A stretch of 64,000 nt of DNA, taken from a bacterium (GTDB lineage Bacteria > Electryoneota > RPQS01). The stretch covers positions 386,219 to 450,218 of the forward strand of contig JAHDVH010000002.1 in the NCBI GenBank assembly GCA_023382385.1. Direction: 5' to 3'. Of the stretch, positions 48,429-53,988 are shown in pieces (the first letter of the stretch is position 1; each line of letters starts with the position of its first letter). Position numbers and translations under genes: made by a program. The notes beneath the pieces were generated by a model. The model worked only from the letters and a program-made list of their open reading frames with translations, did no database searches and was not told where the DNA came from.

Positions 48429-49798
48429 TCACCCTCCTCGCGCGGCGGCAGTGACAGCGCCACTTCCCGTCCTGCGTTTTGATAAGCCTTCAGCGTGATT
48501 TCGCGCGCGCGTTCCACGCTCAGCTTTTCTTTCTCAATCGTCGATACCAGCGGACTGCGCAGCCCGTCGTTCATCATAGCGGTTGCCATCACGATGCGTT
48601 CGGGATACGCCGTCTGTTCGTAGAGGTCAATCAGCTGCACCCGCAGCTTGCACGCCGCTTCCCATTGCGGTTGCGAAACGATTAGCGGAATCGAAATTCC
48701 CTGTGCACGCGAGACGCTTTCGTCATCCACGTGCGTAATTAGCAGCCAGCGCACGTTCGGATAGGCCGCGCCGATCGCCGCCATCGTATTCCAGAAACTC
48801 GTGCGGTTCATTTCGTCGAACAACAGCCCGGGCCGGTCGAGCGACGCCAGCGGCTGCACAATGTCAAAAGAAGTCGTCAGCGATTCACGTAGCTGACTCC
48901 ACAGAGCGTCGTTGTCAGAGAGCGCGAGCTTCGACAGCGGCGGAGGAACCAACACCGCACCCTGACGAACTTCCGGCAGTCGCGGATACGGCTTCGGTGG
49001 AAACACCGACAGCGGCAGACGATTGGTGAAACTCAAGGCTAACGCGCCGCCCACCATCGGGTCGTCTTCAAGCTCCGCATACATGCCCGGATGCAGTCCG
49101 AATCCCCACGGCAGTTGAATATCCACTCCGCCGCGCAGCACTTCCGTATCAGGAAATCTGCCCGTGCGCGTGATGGATTGCGCGAAGGCCAGACTTGCTC
49201 CGATGCGTTCGCCGAACGGGGTCAGTGCGAGCGTCATCCCCCAGCGCATCGCCTGTTCGCGGTTATCGGATGTGCCGAAATAACCTGCGAATGCGCCCAA
49301 CTCGGCGGCTCGGCTCGGCGTCCACGCGGTGCCCACCGAAAGCTGTCCACTCGTCTGTTCGAGCGAAAAGGCCGGCAGTGAAATCACCTGATTCGTCGTC
49401 GAATCGTAGAAACTCTGCTCGTCGCGGAAGCCCGTCGGCAAGATAAGATTGCCGTTGAAGCCGAACGCGAGCTTATCCTTATAAGAAAGCGGCCAGACGG
49501 CCAATCCCAGCCTGGCGTCTTCGGCTCCGTTCTGGAAAGCTCCGCGGCCTGCGAGGTCGCGGTTCGAGGTCGCGGCCGAGAGGGCCAGACCGCGCGCGAC
49601 TCCCAGCTCGAAGGAGGCTCCGAACCGGTTGTCTTCCCAAATCTCGTTGGACAGGGACGCGCCGAATCCGGCCAGTTTGAACCAGCCGGCAGGGACAGGT
49701 TTTGCCCCCGAGCCGGGGTCGGAGACCGCCCCGGACGGCCAGGTTTGCGCCTGAACCATCCCGGCCAAGAGAAGAATAATTAAAGTTTTAGCTTTCAT
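48425..49798 (-). CDS. Predicted outer-membrane beta-barrel protein
   Basis: A 457-residue protein with signal peptide MKAKTLIILLLAGMVQA and residues about 35-285 in alternating strands typical of an outer-membrane barrel (for example LAFGFNGNLILPTGFRDEQ; LGAFAGYFGTSDNREQAMRW). The C-terminal 170 residues are mixed alpha/beta and probably periplasmic or surface-exposed. I use the ATG at 49798; the frame continues upstream through a dispersed repeat and is not coding. First gene of the surface operon. Function unknown. Confidence 0.65.
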   Translation of the reverse strand: MKAKTLIILLLAGMVQAQTWPSGAVSDPGSGAKPVPAGWFKLAGFGASLSNEIWEDNRFGASFELGVARGLALSAATSNRDLAGRGAFQNGAEDARLGLAVWPLSYKDKLAFGFNGNLILPTGFRDEQSFYDSTTNQVISLPAFSLEQTSGQLSVGTAWTPSRAAELGAFAGYFGTSDNREQAMRWGMTLALTPFGERIGASLAFAQSITRTGRFPDTEVLRGGVDIQLPWGFGLHPGMYAELEDDPMVGGALALSFTNRLPLSVFPPKPYPRLPEVRQGAVLVPPPLSKLALSDNDALWSQLRESLTTSFDIVQPLASLDRPGLLFDEMNRTSFWNTMAAIGAAYPNVRWLLITHVDDESVSRAQGISIPLIVSQPQWEAACKLRVQLIDLYEQTAYPERIVMATAMMNDGLRSPLVSTIEKEKLSVERAREITLKAYQNAGREVALSLPPREEGE

Positions 49799-49897
49799 AT
49801 GACTCGGTATAACAGATGCCACAGCACCTTCATCCGGACTGGAACTACGCAACCCATGTGCCACCCCGCTTGGTCGCCCACTTACCTGCCTCCCCTT

Positions 49898-49924
49898 GTC
49901 ATCCTGAACGAAGTGAAGGACCTT
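49898..49924. repeat. Dispersed CHPERSEG/HFVQDD-type repeat fragment
   Basis: GTCATCCTGAACGAAGTGAA and the next 7 bases match the widespread bacterial intergenic repeat that is often mistranslated as HFVQDD or CHPERSEG. It lies between the surface operon and the GATC R-M genes. Confidence 0.55.
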
Positions 49925-49964
49925 GTCCAGCCGCCCGCATCGGCCTTGCCCATCCCACAAAACA

Positions 49965-49990
49965 CAAGCGGCCCCGCTTGGAGCCGCTTG
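49965..49990 (-). terminator. Terminator of the DpnII-like endonuclease gene
   Basis: CAAGCGGC and GCCGCTTG arms with a 10-base loop, followed on the minus strand by TGTTTTG. It lies 24 bases past the stop. Confidence 0.7.
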
Positions 49991-50014
49991 AAGATTCAAT
50001 GATAATCAGCAATT

Positions 50015-50935
50015 CTACTGCAAAACTTGATCGAGCACTCCGTGCTCAAGCATATCAAGAGAAAAGAGATAGTCAATGGCGTCAAAGGTCTCCCTTAAGG
50101 GTCGCTCAGATGCTGCAAGCCCTTGACCGTCTGTAATCCAGATAAACTTATGACGACCACTCAGAAACTTAAACAATGTATTGTACTCTCCTGCTGTTGC
50201 TTTCTGCTTTGTTCCTTCAGAACCATAGAAGTTCGTTTCAATGATAAACAGATTTGACTTCGTATTGATGACAAAGTCATACTTTCGTGACGACTTATCG
50301 TATGGCACAGCGATTCCCCATGCCCGCTGTATTTTTGACGCATTCGCCTGTGCAAGATATGGAAAGTTACGCCGTTGGCATGCGTCAGCAATGAAGACTT
50401 CAACAATGTCCTCCATTACAAAACCGATGCGATTCTTCCGTGCGTTACTGTTCAAACCTGCTTCGACGCCAAACATGTAATCAACAAGATTCTTGACGCG
50501 TTGTGAGGCTATTATGTCCCGAAGGCCTGTTCCCTTAACAAAGTTCAGATAACTTTCAATATCTGAATCGTTGGGTCTTGACTTCGAAAAATCTACCTCC
50601 TCATACTCAAGTCTCTTTTGTTTGTAGTTCACAAGAATGTTGAACTTCATCGAGCCCTTTCCATCTCGAACTACCAACGCGGGTAAAGCTCGAGCCAAAC
50701 CTGGGTTCGATTGGAGTAGTCTTCTAAACTCATTGTCGAAATCTTTCTTACCTATCAAGTAATTGAGACTATTTAGTGCAATCTCAAGATCTTGAGAATT
50801 CGTCTTGACCTTTTCCCAGTCAACAAAATACGACCAAAGCATTATACTAGGCTTAAGATGGGACAAGAAGTATTCGAACACTTGGTCTTCGTTTTTGCAA
50901 TTCAATGCGTTCTTGTAGAATGGTATGAACTTCAT
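50015..50935 (-). CDS. DpnII-like type II restriction endonuclease (GATC)
   Basis: A 306-residue enzyme resembling DpnII, which cuts unmethylated GATC. The C-terminal catalytic region shows KNRIGFVMEDIVEVFI, then KYDFVINTKSNLFIIETNFYG (Asp and Glu of a PD-(D/E)xK-like core), KATAGEYNTLFKFL, FIWITDGQGLA, and the end motif DYLFSLDMLEHGVL. The GATC target is inferred from the family. It starts 8 bases after the methyltransferase. The gene is AT-rich relative to neighbours, suggesting transfer. Confidence 0.85.
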   Translation of the reverse strand: MKFIPFYKNALNCKNEDQVFEYFLSHLKPSIMLWSYFVDWEKVKTNSQDLEIALNSLNYLIGKKDFDNEFRRLLQSNPGLARALPALVVRDGKGSMKFNILVNYKQKRLEYEEVDFSKSRPNDSDIESYLNFVKGTGLRDIIASQRVKNLVDYMFGVEAGLNSNARKNRIGFVMEDIVEVFIADACQRRNFPYLAQANASKIQRAWGIAVPYDKSSRKYDFVINTKSNLFIIETNFYGSEGTKQKATAGEYNTLFKFLSGRHKFIWITDGQGLAASERPLRETFDAIDYLFSLDMLEHGVLDQVLQ

Positions 50936-50943
50936 CGCTGTTT

Positions 50944-51888
50944 CTATAGGCTTAGCTGACCGCTTTTTTCGTAAACCAGCTTCTTCACCCTCTTCACCGA
51001 AACATCCAAATACTTTTTCTCCAGATCAATCCCGATGAACTTCCGCCCGTTCGCCACCGCCGCCAACCCCGTCGAAGAGCTCCCGGCAAAGGGATCCAGA
51101 ATCAACGCCCCCGGCACTGTTGAAGCGAGCACGATTCTCCTGAGCAATTCAACCGGTTTCTGTGTCGGATGTTTGCCGAACGTCTTCTCTTCCGGCGGCG
51201 GCGTGTTGATTGCCCAGATCGAGCGCATCTGCTTGTCCGGCTTCTTGATAAAGTCTCCCGGCCACGTGCCGTGCCGCATCTCCTTGTAGTTGAAAACGTG
51301 TTTTGCTTTCGCGGACTTTCTCGCCCACAGAATCGTCTCGTGGCTCGCCGTGAAATACCGGCAGGAGAGATTCGGCGATGCGTTCGGTTTGTACCAGGCG
51401 ATATCGTTCAGGATCTTGAAGCCCTGCAGTTGCAGCGCGTAGCCGCAGGCGTAGATGGAGTGATAGGTTCCGCTGATCCACAGTGTGCCTTCGGGCTTCA
51501 GTACTCTGCGGCACGCCGCTATCCACTCCATGTGAAACCTGAAGTCCTCTTCCAGTCCGCGGCTCTTGTCCCACTTTCCTTTGTTCACACTCGCGCGTTT
51601 ACCCGCATGCACCGTGAACCCGTCGTTGGAAAGCATGTACGGCGGATCGGCGAACACCATATCGAAATGATCTTCGGGAAACTGTGTTAGAATTTCGCGG
51701 CAATCCCCGTGCAGTAAACAGAAGCCGTTCTCGTTGAAGTATGGATCAATCCCCTTCGGCAACTCGACCCGCACAGTAGCCATAACAACAGCGTGCGGCT
51801 TGTGACCGTTCTTTGACGGAGCCTTCGCCTTCTTTTCTTTTCCCGCTTTTCTGCGGAGGATGGTATCAGCCAATTCGATATTGCTCAA
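50944..51888 (-). CDS. DpnA-like adenine methyltransferase (probable GATC)
   Basis: A 314-residue beta-type N6-adenine methyltransferase. Motif IV FADPPYMLSNDG (near residue 80), a SVNKGKWDKS region as in DpnA-type enzymes, and motif I LDPFAGSSSTGLAA near 270 with FIGIDLEKKYLDVS. DpnA can methylate single-stranded DNA during transformation; whether this one does is unknown. The start is TTG at 51888; the first ATG in frame is at 51783 after a Lys-rich stretch. The predicted promoter contains several GATC sites. Confidence 0.85.
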   Translation of the reverse strand: MSNIELADTILRRKAGKEKKAKAPSKNGHKPHAVVMATVRVELPKGIDPYFNENGFCLLHGDCREILTQFPEDHFDMVFADPPYMLSNDGFTVHAGKRASVNKGKWDKSRGLEEDFRFHMEWIAACRRVLKPEGTLWISGTYHSIYACGYALQLQGFKILNDIAWYKPNASPNLSCRYFTASHETILWARKSAKAKHVFNYKEMRHGTWPGDFIKKPDKQMRSIWAINTPPPEEKTFGKHPTQKPVELLRRIVLASTVPGALILDPFAGSSSTGLAAVANGRKFIGIDLEKKYLDVSVKRVKKLVYEKSGQLSL

Positions 51889-51928
51889 GGGTAAGCGCGA
51901 TCTAACTTATTGATTTTTGATCACATTG

Positions 51929-51957
51929 ATCGTAGTGATAATTGAGCAAATGATCAA
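51929..51957 (-). promoter_or_regulatory. Promoter of GATC R-M genes carrying its own target sites
   Basis: Minus strand: TTGATC (51957-51952), 17-base spacer, TACGAT (51934-51929). One GATC lies in the -35; a second overlaps the last three bases of the -10 (51928-51931). A third (51919-51922) lies at the expected start point. Confidence 0.55.
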
Positions 51958-52090
51958 GGTTCCCCCCCCGCACGCCTCCTTTTCTCCTCCCCTTTCCCCA
52001 CCTCCGACCCCTAAACCCCTGTTTTTCGACCTGCCTTCGGGTCCTAACCCCAACCCTCATCATCATTTAGAACATTTGTTCAAAAAACAC

Positions 52091-52119
52091 TTGACAAACC
52101 CCATTTTCAGTATTATATT
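52091..52119 (+). promoter_or_regulatory. Orphan sigma70-like promoter (second copy)
   Basis: TTGACA, 17 bases, TATATT on the plus strand, in a stretch similar to 12348-12417. No plus-strand gene follows before the antisense C11 peptidase gene. Confidence 0.45.
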
Positions 52120-52186
52120 AGACTCGTTCACTTCAGATAACTAAACCATTGTTTTATGTAACACGCAATCCCAACCCAAACAAAAA

Positions 52187-52216
52187 CAGGGGCCACCCCT
52201 CGCGGGACAGCCCCTG
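52187..52216 (-). terminator. Terminator of C11 peptidase gene
   Basis: CAGGGGC and GCCCCTG arms with a 16-base structured loop, followed on the minus strand by TTTTTGTTTG. It lies 27 bases after the stop codon. Confidence 0.85.
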
Positions 52217-52242
52217 CCAGCCAAACTATCCTTAAATAGCCG

Positions 52243-53988
52243 CTACTTCAGAACCACTGCTCCCGGCTCATCCGTAATTCCCACCTGCGTAATCCTGAAC
52301 TGGAACGGACCGCTTCCGTCCCAAATCGCCACCGCGATGAACAGCTCACCCGAACCGTTGAAACTGCACACGAAATCCTCGCTCGGCCCCGTCGCTTCGC
52401 TCATACAGCCAAGCTGACTGGCACACGGCGAGAAGGTATACACGTCGTAGTCGTTCCCGCCCGACGTCGCCATCTCAAAGCGATACTGCCCGGTGGAGAT
52501 ATTCACCCGCAGCCAATTCGCATCGCCCCGCGACCCCGTCAAATTGCATTCCACAACCTGACCGAGCGAAATCGGAGTGGCCGACGCGCAGTTTGTCGCG
52601 CAATTCGTGCCGCCGCCGCCGCAACCCTGAGCGCACGTCGCGCCCTGCGTCCACGTGCCGCCTAATTGATTGCACTGCGCCTGCGTCACGTCCTGACACG
52701 ACTGATTATTATTGTAGCAGCAGCGGCCCGTCGGTGATTGCTGACCCAAACTGCGCACGAAGGTCGAAATAAACGAGTGCCAGTTCGTCGCCCGCCATTG
52801 CAGACTCGAGTAACTCACCGAATCCGGAACAAACTGATCCACCTGCCACGGAATATACACGTTCACACCGCCGCGCGGCACCGGCTGTGTCGGAGAATGA
52901 AAGTACGTGTCCGTAAACGGTATTGCCGAGTTCAGCGCGTTGCGCACGTTCACCGCATTCGAGTTAATCAGGTTGATCGTCGCCAGCGTCGGCTGCGCCT
53001 GAATCTGATTCGTGAATTCGCGAACGTCCACATACTTCGGATTGTCAAGATTCGTCGCGTGCGTGCTGTTCCACGCATTCAGCACTTCGTTCCAATGCTG
53101 TCCGCCCTCCTGCACCAATATATTGCCGAAATTGCCCAGCGCCGCGCCGAGATTCTGCATCTCCGACATCTTCATCATCGCGTAATGCGTCGTCTTCTGC
53201 TTGAATTGCGCGCGCTCGATCACCGACTGCACAATCTTCCGCGAATACTGATCGTTCGAAGCGCTCTGATTGTCCTTCAACCAGCCGAGCCAAAGGTCCG
53301 CGCCGAGAATGTTCTCCATCGGCATCACGAACTGACAAGCGGTCATGTATTCACACACGCTGCGCAGTTCATAGGCTACCTCGACCATCCCCATCAGACA
53401 CGCGTGCCACGTCAGAATGTCCACCCGGCCCAAGTCCGACGACGCGATCGCTTCCCGCGTCTCCGGCAGCGTCAACAGTCCGCCCGCTCCGGCCAAATCG
53501 TCCGAGCAGCTTCCCGGCCAGCCCGCGCCGTGATCGTCAATAATCAGATGATAACGCTCCGCCGGAAAATTCGCCTTGCAGTAGTTGATGAAATTTCTGA
53601 GCGTCTGCGGATCCGACATGTCCCGCGTTCCCAGATTCTCAAGCTCCGGGGAACTAATCTGATTCGGATTCTCGCTCGGATGATACTCCACCTTGTAGTA
53701 GCGCGCATTTCCGCCGCCGCCATAACGCGAGACCATCGCAATCATGTTTAATCCCTGCTGACTCCCGACCTTCTGCATGTCCTGCACGTCCTGAACTATA
53801 TACGACGTGCCGTTGTTCGCCAGGTCGAGGTCGTTATTCCCCGCTCCATAGAGCATAATCGTCCACTTAGCCTGACCCCCGCCGTTGTCGTCGCCGCCGT
53901 CGTCACTGCTGCAGCTGACAATCAGGGCCAACGCAATCAGCACGGTCAGTGCCGGAACCGTCCACCAAACCGTTTTACTGAACTTCAT
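52243..53988 (-). CDS. Clostripain (C11) family cysteine peptidase lipoprotein
   Basis: A 581-residue lipoprotein (lipobox LALIVSCSS). The C11 domain (about 40-400) begins WTIMLYGAGNNDLD, with the catalytic His in DDHGAGWPG (near 151) and Cys in WHACLMGMVEV (near 194). A short Cys-rich segment (CCYNNNQSCQDVTQAQCNQL) and a PPC-like beta-sandwich (about 470-575) follow. C11 enzymes usually cleave after Arg or Lys; the specificity here is not known. No T9SS domain is present. A promoter lies 19 bases upstream of the start. Confidence 0.85.
   Translation of the reverse strand: MKFSKTVWWTVPALTVLIALALIVSCSSDDGGDDNGGGQAKWTIMLYGAGNNDLDLANNGTSYIVQDVQDMQKVGSQQGLNMIAMVSRYGGGGNARYYKVEYHPSENPNQISSPELENLGTRDMSDPQTLRNFINYCKANFPAERYHLIIDDHGAGWPGSCSDDLAGAGGLLTLPETREAIASSDLGRVDILTWHACLMGMVEVAYELRSVCEYMTACQFVMPMENILGADLWLGWLKDNQSASNDQYSRKIVQSVIERAQFKQKTTHYAMMKMSEMQNLGAALGNFGNILVQEGGQHWNEVLNAWNSTHATNLDNPKYVDVREFTNQIQAQPTLATINLINSNAVNVRNALNSAIPFTDTYFHSPTQPVPRGGVNVYIPWQVDQFVPDSVSYSSLQWRATNWHSFISTFVRSLGQQSPTGRCCYNNNQSCQDVTQAQCNQLGGTWTQGATCAQGCGGGGTNCATNCASATPISLGQVVECNLTGSRGDANWLRVNISTGQYRFEMATSGGNDYDVYTFSPCASQLGCMSEATGPSEDFVCSFNGSGELFIAVAIWDGSGPFQFRITQVGITDEPGAVVLK

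What the first reader, a model, noticed from the sequence alone, without database searches (positions are those of the whole stretch)
51899..51957. GATC sites in the -35, -10 and start region of the GATC methylase promoter
Seen: four GATC in 57 bases (51899, 51919, 51928, 51952), against an average of about one per 256. The predicted promoter is TTGATC-N17-TACGAT, so GATC lies in the -35 and overlaps the -10, and another sits at the expected start point. Known: some R-M systems (for example CfrBI) control themselves by methylating their own site in the promoter. Inference: adenine methylation by this DpnA-like enzyme could lower its own transcription and so balance methylase and endonuclease without a separate control protein; none is present here.
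Basis: partly seen in the sequence, partly recalled or inferred. Interest (0 to 1): 0.74.

Follow-up and report, generated by a model that had tools for sequence, protein, structure and literature searches.

The report
GATC methylase promoter carrying its own sites
The start region of a DNA-protection gene is packed with the same four-letter site that its enzyme is predicted to mark, and similar packing recurs in relatives from several distant bacterial groups, which suggests, but does not prove, that the enzyme senses its own activity and tunes its own production.

Summary
Confirmed: four GATC lie in 57 bp (51899-51955) directly upstream of a GATC-type R-M operon (methylase, then DpnII-family endonuclease, minus strand). 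In 464 kb of this genome only six such clusters exist; this is the only non-coding one. A same-genus relative keeps the 58-bp block (54/58 positions; flanks diverged), losing one GATC and gaining another, although its endonuclease is Sau3AI/MutH-like instead. Of 113 related methylase genes, 16 have at least three GATC in 60 bp upstream, against 2 of 275 control genes; they fall in about eight places on the methylase tree, two of these in GATC-dense DNA. In five promoters of three lineages GATC fills the end of a -10-like box 17 bp from a -35-like box.

Best reading: autogenous feedback by methylation (or occupancy) of the promoter, as known for CfrBI, AhdI and LlaDII and reported for CcrM, but which I did not find described for GATC systems or as recurring site clusters. 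Not shown: start site, methylation, its effect. Most relatives lack the cluster. Methylase and endonuclease share one predicted promoter, so feedback would set the dose of both, not their ratio; the 'balance' claim is only partly supported.

The parts
51952..51955 (.). GATC site 1, inside the -35-like hexamer TTGATC (51952-51957)
   Evidence: sequence; conserved in G028
51928..51931 (.). GATC site 2, overlapping the end of the -10-like hexamer TACGAT (51929-51934)
   Evidence: sequence; conserved in G028; same -10 overlap in L025, L049, L047
51919..51922 (.). GATC site 3, at the expected transcription start
   Evidence: sequence; conserved in G028; start position is inferred, not mapped
51899..51902 (.). 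GATC site 4, in the predicted short leader
   Evidence: sequence; lost in G028 (GATA), where TTGCTCAA at the window's 51943-51950 has instead become TTGATCAA
51929..51957 (-). Predicted promoter TTGATC-N17-TACGAT
   Evidence: 8/12 consensus match; spacing conserved in G028; not reported by the consensus scan
51900..51957 (-). Conserved promoter block, 54 of 58 positions identical to G028 while flanks diverge
   Evidence: alignments
50944..51888 (-). Methylase (beta-class N6/N4 MTase), 314 aa from a TTG start
   Evidence: PF01555 6e-59; CcrM 5e-56 and DpnA 6e-29 in PDB; conserved TTG and coding-type substitutions 10,8,21 by codon position in the N-terminal extension
50015..50935 (-). DpnII-family restriction endonuclease, 8 nt downstream of the methylase
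   Evidence: PF04556 2e-84; PADLOC REase_II 1e-87
52185..52218 (-). Terminator-like hairpin of the upstream gene, separating it from the R-M operon

Best explanation
The GATC cluster is a cis-regulatory element through which the R-M operon reads its own methylase activity. On an unmethylated promoter (new host, or after replication when methylase is scarce) RNA polymerase uses the TTGATC-N17-TACGAT promoter. As methylase accumulates it methylates (and transiently occupies) the GATC sites in the -35, -10 and start region, which weakens initiation and caps output of the shared methylase-endonuclease transcript. Shown: the sites, their statistical excess, their conservation with site turnover, their recurrence in relatives. 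Inferred: promoter position, GATC specificity, methylation of these sites, and the sign of the effect (repression, by analogy with CfrBI, AhdI, LlaDII and CcrM).
For: Rarity and non-coding position of the cluster. Conservation in G028 at the same chromosomal place, 54/58 positions, with one GATC lost and one gained so that four remain. 16 of 113 methylase upstreams vs 2 of 275 control upstreams have >=3 GATC in 60 bp; 8 vs 0 have >=4; locus-matched P<5e-5. Positives lie in about eight separate places on the methylase tree. GATC positions are 0.79-1.00 identical vs 0.37-0.68 outside in six related upstream pairs. GATC fills the end of a -10-like box 17 nt from a -35-like box in window/L078, L025/L049 and L047. 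The cluster is kept when the endonuclease is DpnII, Sau3AI/MutH-like, DpnI-like or DUF6996/6997, so it goes with the methylase. No Dam-type gene and no evident controller gene. Precedents: PMC12707154, PMC4824078, PMC2217572.
Against: No transcription or methylation data. Promoter match is weak (8/12). Most relatives, including all sampled Patescibacteria and most Desulfobacterota, have no cluster, so it is not needed for the system to work. L107, L110 and L040 sit in GATC-dense DNA. The Verrucomicrobial clusters and L081 do not fit a -10 overlap. GATC specificity of the methylase is inferred, and its closest solved relative is GANTC-specific CcrM. The 60-bp/three-site criterion was chosen after seeing the first examples.
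Confidence: 0.58

Rival explanations
1. Occupancy rather than methylation: the methylase binds the clustered GATC sites and blocks RNA polymerase, acting as its own repressor.
For: Several close sites favour local capture of a dimeric enzyme (inference); MTase-as-repressor control is known for Ecl18kI, SsoII and EcoRII (PMC12707154).
Against: Those repressors use a fused N-terminal helix-turn-helix; the N-terminal extension here is about 50 residues, lysine-rich, with no domain hit. Binding to a site is normally brief once it is methylated (general knowledge).
Confidence: 0.12
2. Methylation activates the promoter: low basal expression in a new host lets methylase act first, and methylated GATC sites then raise output of both genes (positive feedback with delay).
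For: Suits a single methylase-endonuclease transcript better than repression, because it would delay the endonuclease in a naive host (inference from gene order).
Against: The characterised self-site promoters (CfrBI, AhdI, LlaDII) are repressed by methylation (PMC12707154; PMC4824078).
Confidence: 0.1
3. The sites are part of an operator for a separate DNA-binding protein with a TGATCA-like target (G028 has the perfect dyad TTGATCA-TT-TGATCAA), and GATC is incidental.
For: Dyad in G028 and repeated TGATCAA-like words in the window.
Against: Across lineages only GATC is shared; flanking bases and spacing differ. No regulator gene is evident next to the operon; the only controller-like neighbours found are in L118 and L119, which lack clusters.
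Confidence: 0.08
4. Chance plus ordinary promoter conservation: a promoter that happens to contain GATC, with no regulatory role for the sites.
For: Short motif; 297 triple-GATC clusters occur in this 2.9-Mb genome; many relatives lack the cluster.
Against: Shuffle and control-gene statistics, recurrence in separate branches of the methylase tree, site turnover that preserves number.
Confidence: 0.07
5. Fail-safe: unmethylated GATC sites in the promoter make the cassette a target of its own endonuclease, so that copies or cells that lose methylation are destroyed or silenced.
For: The sites are potential targets of the DpnII-family enzyme (family assignment).
Against: Every unmethylated genome already has thousands of GATC targets (4.5 per kb), so four more add little; clusters also occur beside a DpnI-like gene, whose family cuts methylated GATC.
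Confidence: 0.04

Closest known systems
CfrBI, AhdI and LlaDII type II R-M systems (promoter methylation; reviewed in PMC12707154)
   Same: Recognition site of the methylase in its own promoter, where methylation lowers methylase transcription; no C protein needed for this loop.
   Different: CfrBI has divergent overlapping promoters; AhdI also has a C protein. Here the predicted target is GATC, four sites are clustered, and methylase and endonuclease form one tandem operon. The effect of methylation is not shown here.
CcrM of Caulobacter (GANTC, orphan)
   Same: Closest solved relative of the methylase (5e-56); its promoter carries its own sites and methylation shuts it down (PMC2217572).
   Different: CcrM is solitary, cell-cycle controlled through CtrA, GANTC-specific and has a C-terminal DNA-binding domain; the window enzyme aligns only to CcrM 15-262 of 366, has an endonuclease partner and groups with DpnII-linked methylases.
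DpnII / LlaDCHI-type GATC systems (e.g. pSRQ700)
   Same: DpnII-family endonuclease; methylase 49% identical to the M2 gene of pSRQ700.
   Different: Those have a D12-type M1 plus M2 plus R, and pSRQ700 has no GATC in the 500 bp before M1. Here there is one methylase, no PF02086 gene in the genome and a GATC-clustered promoter.
Dam-sensitive promoters such as IS10 pIN (from memory)
   Same: GATC overlapping a -10 box, transcription lowered by adenine methylation.
   Different: There the methylase is the host's Dam and its own gene is not the target; not tested here.

Membership tests
R-M control by methylation of the MTase promoter (CfrBI/AhdI/LlaDII kind) | Recognition site of the methylase within its own promoter | tested here: met
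   GATC in the predicted -35, -10 and start, conserved in G028; promoter position and GATC specificity are inferred
R-M control by methylation of the MTase promoter (CfrBI/AhdI/LlaDII kind) | Methylated promoter is less active | not testable with these tools
   needs reporter or in vitro transcription
R-M control by methylation of the MTase promoter (CfrBI/AhdI/LlaDII kind) | Divergent overlapping R and M promoters (CfrBI only) | tested here: not met
   M and R are in tandem on the minus strand, 8 nt apart
DpnII-type R-M system | DpnII-family endonuclease (PF04556) | tested here: met
   2e-84
DpnII-type R-M system | Two methylases, D12-type DpnM plus DpnA | tested here: not met
   one methylase in the operon; no PF02086 match in the genome
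GATC-specific methylase | Methylates adenine in GATC | not testable with these tools
   indirect support: partner endonucleases are DpnII here and Sau3AI/MutH-like in G028; 49% identity to pSRQ700 M2
CcrM orphan methylase | Solitary, with the C-terminal DNA-binding domain | tested here: not met
   has an endonuclease partner; aligns to CcrM 15-262 of 366 and ends there; score 219 vs NCBIfam CcrM cut-off 830
C-protein-controlled R-M | XRE-type controller gene next to R/M | tested here: not met
   no such gene beside the window operon. A search seeded with the L118 controller hit only L118 and L119, both without the cluster; a divergent controller could be missed

The most novel reading that the evidence does not exclude
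Clusters of the cognate site in the methylase promoter arose repeatedly in GATC R-M cassettes of several phyla as a portable, regulator-free control device: promoter and methylase stay together while the endonuclease partner is exchanged (DpnII, Sau3AI/MutH-like, DpnI-like, DUF6996/6997).
Probability: 0.35. Interest if true: 0.7.

Novelty: new variant of a known kind. Interest (0 to 1): 0.55.

Why it matters
How two-gene R-M cassettes without a control protein keep methylase and endonuclease at safe levels is largely unexplained, and promoter methylation is regarded as a rarely used solution (PMC12707154). A self-site cluster that recurs in several lineages and survives endonuclease exchange would make it a more general one, and it gives a clear prediction that one reporter in dam+ and dam- E. 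coli can test.

Tried and rejected
Viral contigs: no relatives. Rfam: no RNA element at 49700-52400. Start at ATG 51783 instead of TTG 51888: considered because relatives begin near there; less likely because the extension is conserved with a coding-type substitution pattern and a conserved TTG, but not excluded. Cluster in three-gene or endonuclease-first loci: absent before the methylase and before the endonuclease, so the claim is not extended to them. LexA-like reading of the GAACATTTGTTC dyad upstream: GAACN4GTTC is not enriched in the genome (76 vs 108 for the reversed control). Last extra phylum search (Caldiserica group) added no new locus. Primary papers on CfrBI (PMC110769) and AhdI (PMC2275141) are not held; their content is cited through reviews. 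The LlaDII primary paper was not read.

Full report
Observation. Four in 57 bp is unusual: dinucleotide shuffles of the 77-bp segment average 0.62 GATC, P(>=4)=0.0005; of the 354-bp intergenic region, P(4 in 57)=5e-5. In 400 kb sampled from this genome plus the window there are six clusters of four in 60 bp, and only this one is in non-coding DNA. Looser triples are common genome-wide (297), so density alone is not decisive; position and conservation are.

The genes. 50944-51888(-) is a beta-class N6/N4 methylase (PF01555) and 50015-50935(-) a DpnII-family endonuclease (PF04556, 2e-84). They are 8 nt apart, and a terminator-like hairpin at 52218-52185 separates them from the upstream gene. Among solved structures the methylase resembles CcrM (5e-56) more than a DpnA (6e-29). 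It is 49% identical to the M2 methylase of pSRQ700, a three-gene DpnII-type cassette (that this is the GATC system LlaDCHI is from memory), against 38-42% for alphaproteobacterial CcrM-type enzymes. In the tree, DpnII-linked sequences spread over the part that excludes the CcrM-type ones. The genome has no D12 Dam-type methylase, so this gene is the best candidate for GATC methylation; two other beta-class genes, 36% and 27% identical over most of the domain, are uncharacterised.

Second species. G028 (same genus) has the operon at the same place, between the same neighbours, with a methylase 80-84% identical but a Sau3AI/MutH-like endonuclease (NCBIfam Sau3AI 2e-15, Pfam MutH 1e-8) in place of DpnII. 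Both endonuclease families are known for GATC, which supports GATC as the target. The promoter block is conserved at 54 of 58 positions while its surroundings are not. One GATC (51899) is GATA there, and TTGCTCAA has become TTGATCAA, so the number remains four. Substitutions between TTG 51888 and M36 fall 10, 8, 21 by codon position, so the TTG start, about 10 nt from the cluster, is favoured.

Other lineages. I collected 113 methylase relatives and compared the 310 bp upstream of each with the upstreams of 275 other genes in the same loci. At least three GATC in 60 bp: 16 vs 2. At least four: 8 vs 0. With controls drawn from the same locus, P<5e-5. Of the mixed-composition palindromes CATG, GTAC, CTAG, AGCT, TCGA, TGCA and ACGT none reaches four; GC-only and AT-only ones do in GC-rich or AT-rich DNA. 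Positives: window and L078; L079 and L080 (same order); L081 (same phylum); L025 and L049 (Planctomycetales); L047 (Caldiserica); L065 and L090-L092 (Verrucomicrobia); L030, L107 and L110 (one deltaproteobacterial group); L040 (Campylobacterota). L107, L110 and L040 come from GATC-dense loci (8.7-15.8 per kb) and carry little weight. On the tree these form roughly eight separate places; several support values are low, and transfer or loss cannot be told from independent gain. The relatives were sampled unevenly, related ones are not independent, and the 60-bp/three-site cut-off was chosen after seeing the first examples, so the P value is descriptive. In six alignments of related upstreams (not all independent) GATC positions are 0.79-1.00 identical against 0.37-0.68 outside.

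Architecture. A -10-like box ending in GAT(C), 17 nt from TTGA(C/T)N, occurs in the window and L078 (TTGATC..TACGATC), L049 (TTGACA..AAAGATC), L025 (TTGACT..AAAGATC) and L047 (TTGACA..AATGATC). In L079 and L080 GATC directly follows the -10 (TTGATC..TAAATTGATC). With GATC positions fixed and the rest shuffled, p is 0.035, 0.046, 0.006, 0.037 and 0.0002, and 0.12 and 0.09 for L079 and L080; the Verrucomicrobial clusters and L081 show no such fit. The -10 overlap is thus supported in three lineages and is not general.

Mechanism. The simplest account is that promoter output depends on the methylation state (or occupancy) of these sites. Repression follows the characterised cases: CfrBI, AhdI and LlaDII (PMC12707154); [quoted passage not shown] and CcrM, whose promoter carries GANTC and whose production is shut down by methylation in the published model (PMC2217572). 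Activation by methylation is a serious alternative, since it would delay the endonuclease in a new host. The sign cannot be read from sequence.

Negatives. Most relatives have no cluster, including the AT-rich Patescibacteria and the Desulfobacterota sampled, and three-gene or endonuclease-first operons lack it. Two relatives without the cluster (L118, L119) carry an XRE-type, C-protein-like gene just upstream, which would be an alternative control.

Verdict. A real, conserved and recurrent feature; promoter-methylation feedback is probable but unproven; a new variant of a known kind, pending a reporter experiment.

Noticed in passing
L090 (406-1179, -) and L091 (2575-3345, +): In two Verrucomicrobia the GATC-promoter methylase is followed by a DpnI homologue (PF06044 4.5e-53 and 1.3e-51). 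DpnI cuts methylated GATC, so the pair looks self-destructive; the ELK motif of DpnI reads QLK in both.
   Followed up: partly
L078:9507-10151 vs window 50015-50935: At the same chromosomal place in two species of one genus the methylase and promoter are kept but the endonuclease differs: DpnII-family here, Sau3AI/MutH-like in G028.
   Followed up: partly
window 52072-52119 (+): A strong promoter-like site (TTGACA-17-TATATT, 11/12) with a GAACATTTGTTC dyad just before its -35, both conserved in G028, points away from the methylase into a region without a + strand gene.
   Followed up: partly
L118, L119: Relatives without a GATC cluster have an XRE-type (C-protein-like) gene immediately upstream of the methylase.
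   Followed up: partly
window and G000 sample: CTAG (6 vs 50 expected in the window; 55 vs 399 in the sample), GTAC and GATC are under-represented.
   Followed up: no
L049:4998-5774: The gene after the GATC-promoter methylase is a DUF6996-DUF6997 protein (1.5e-23, 6e-49); its position suggests an uncharacterised endonuclease partner.
   Followed up: no
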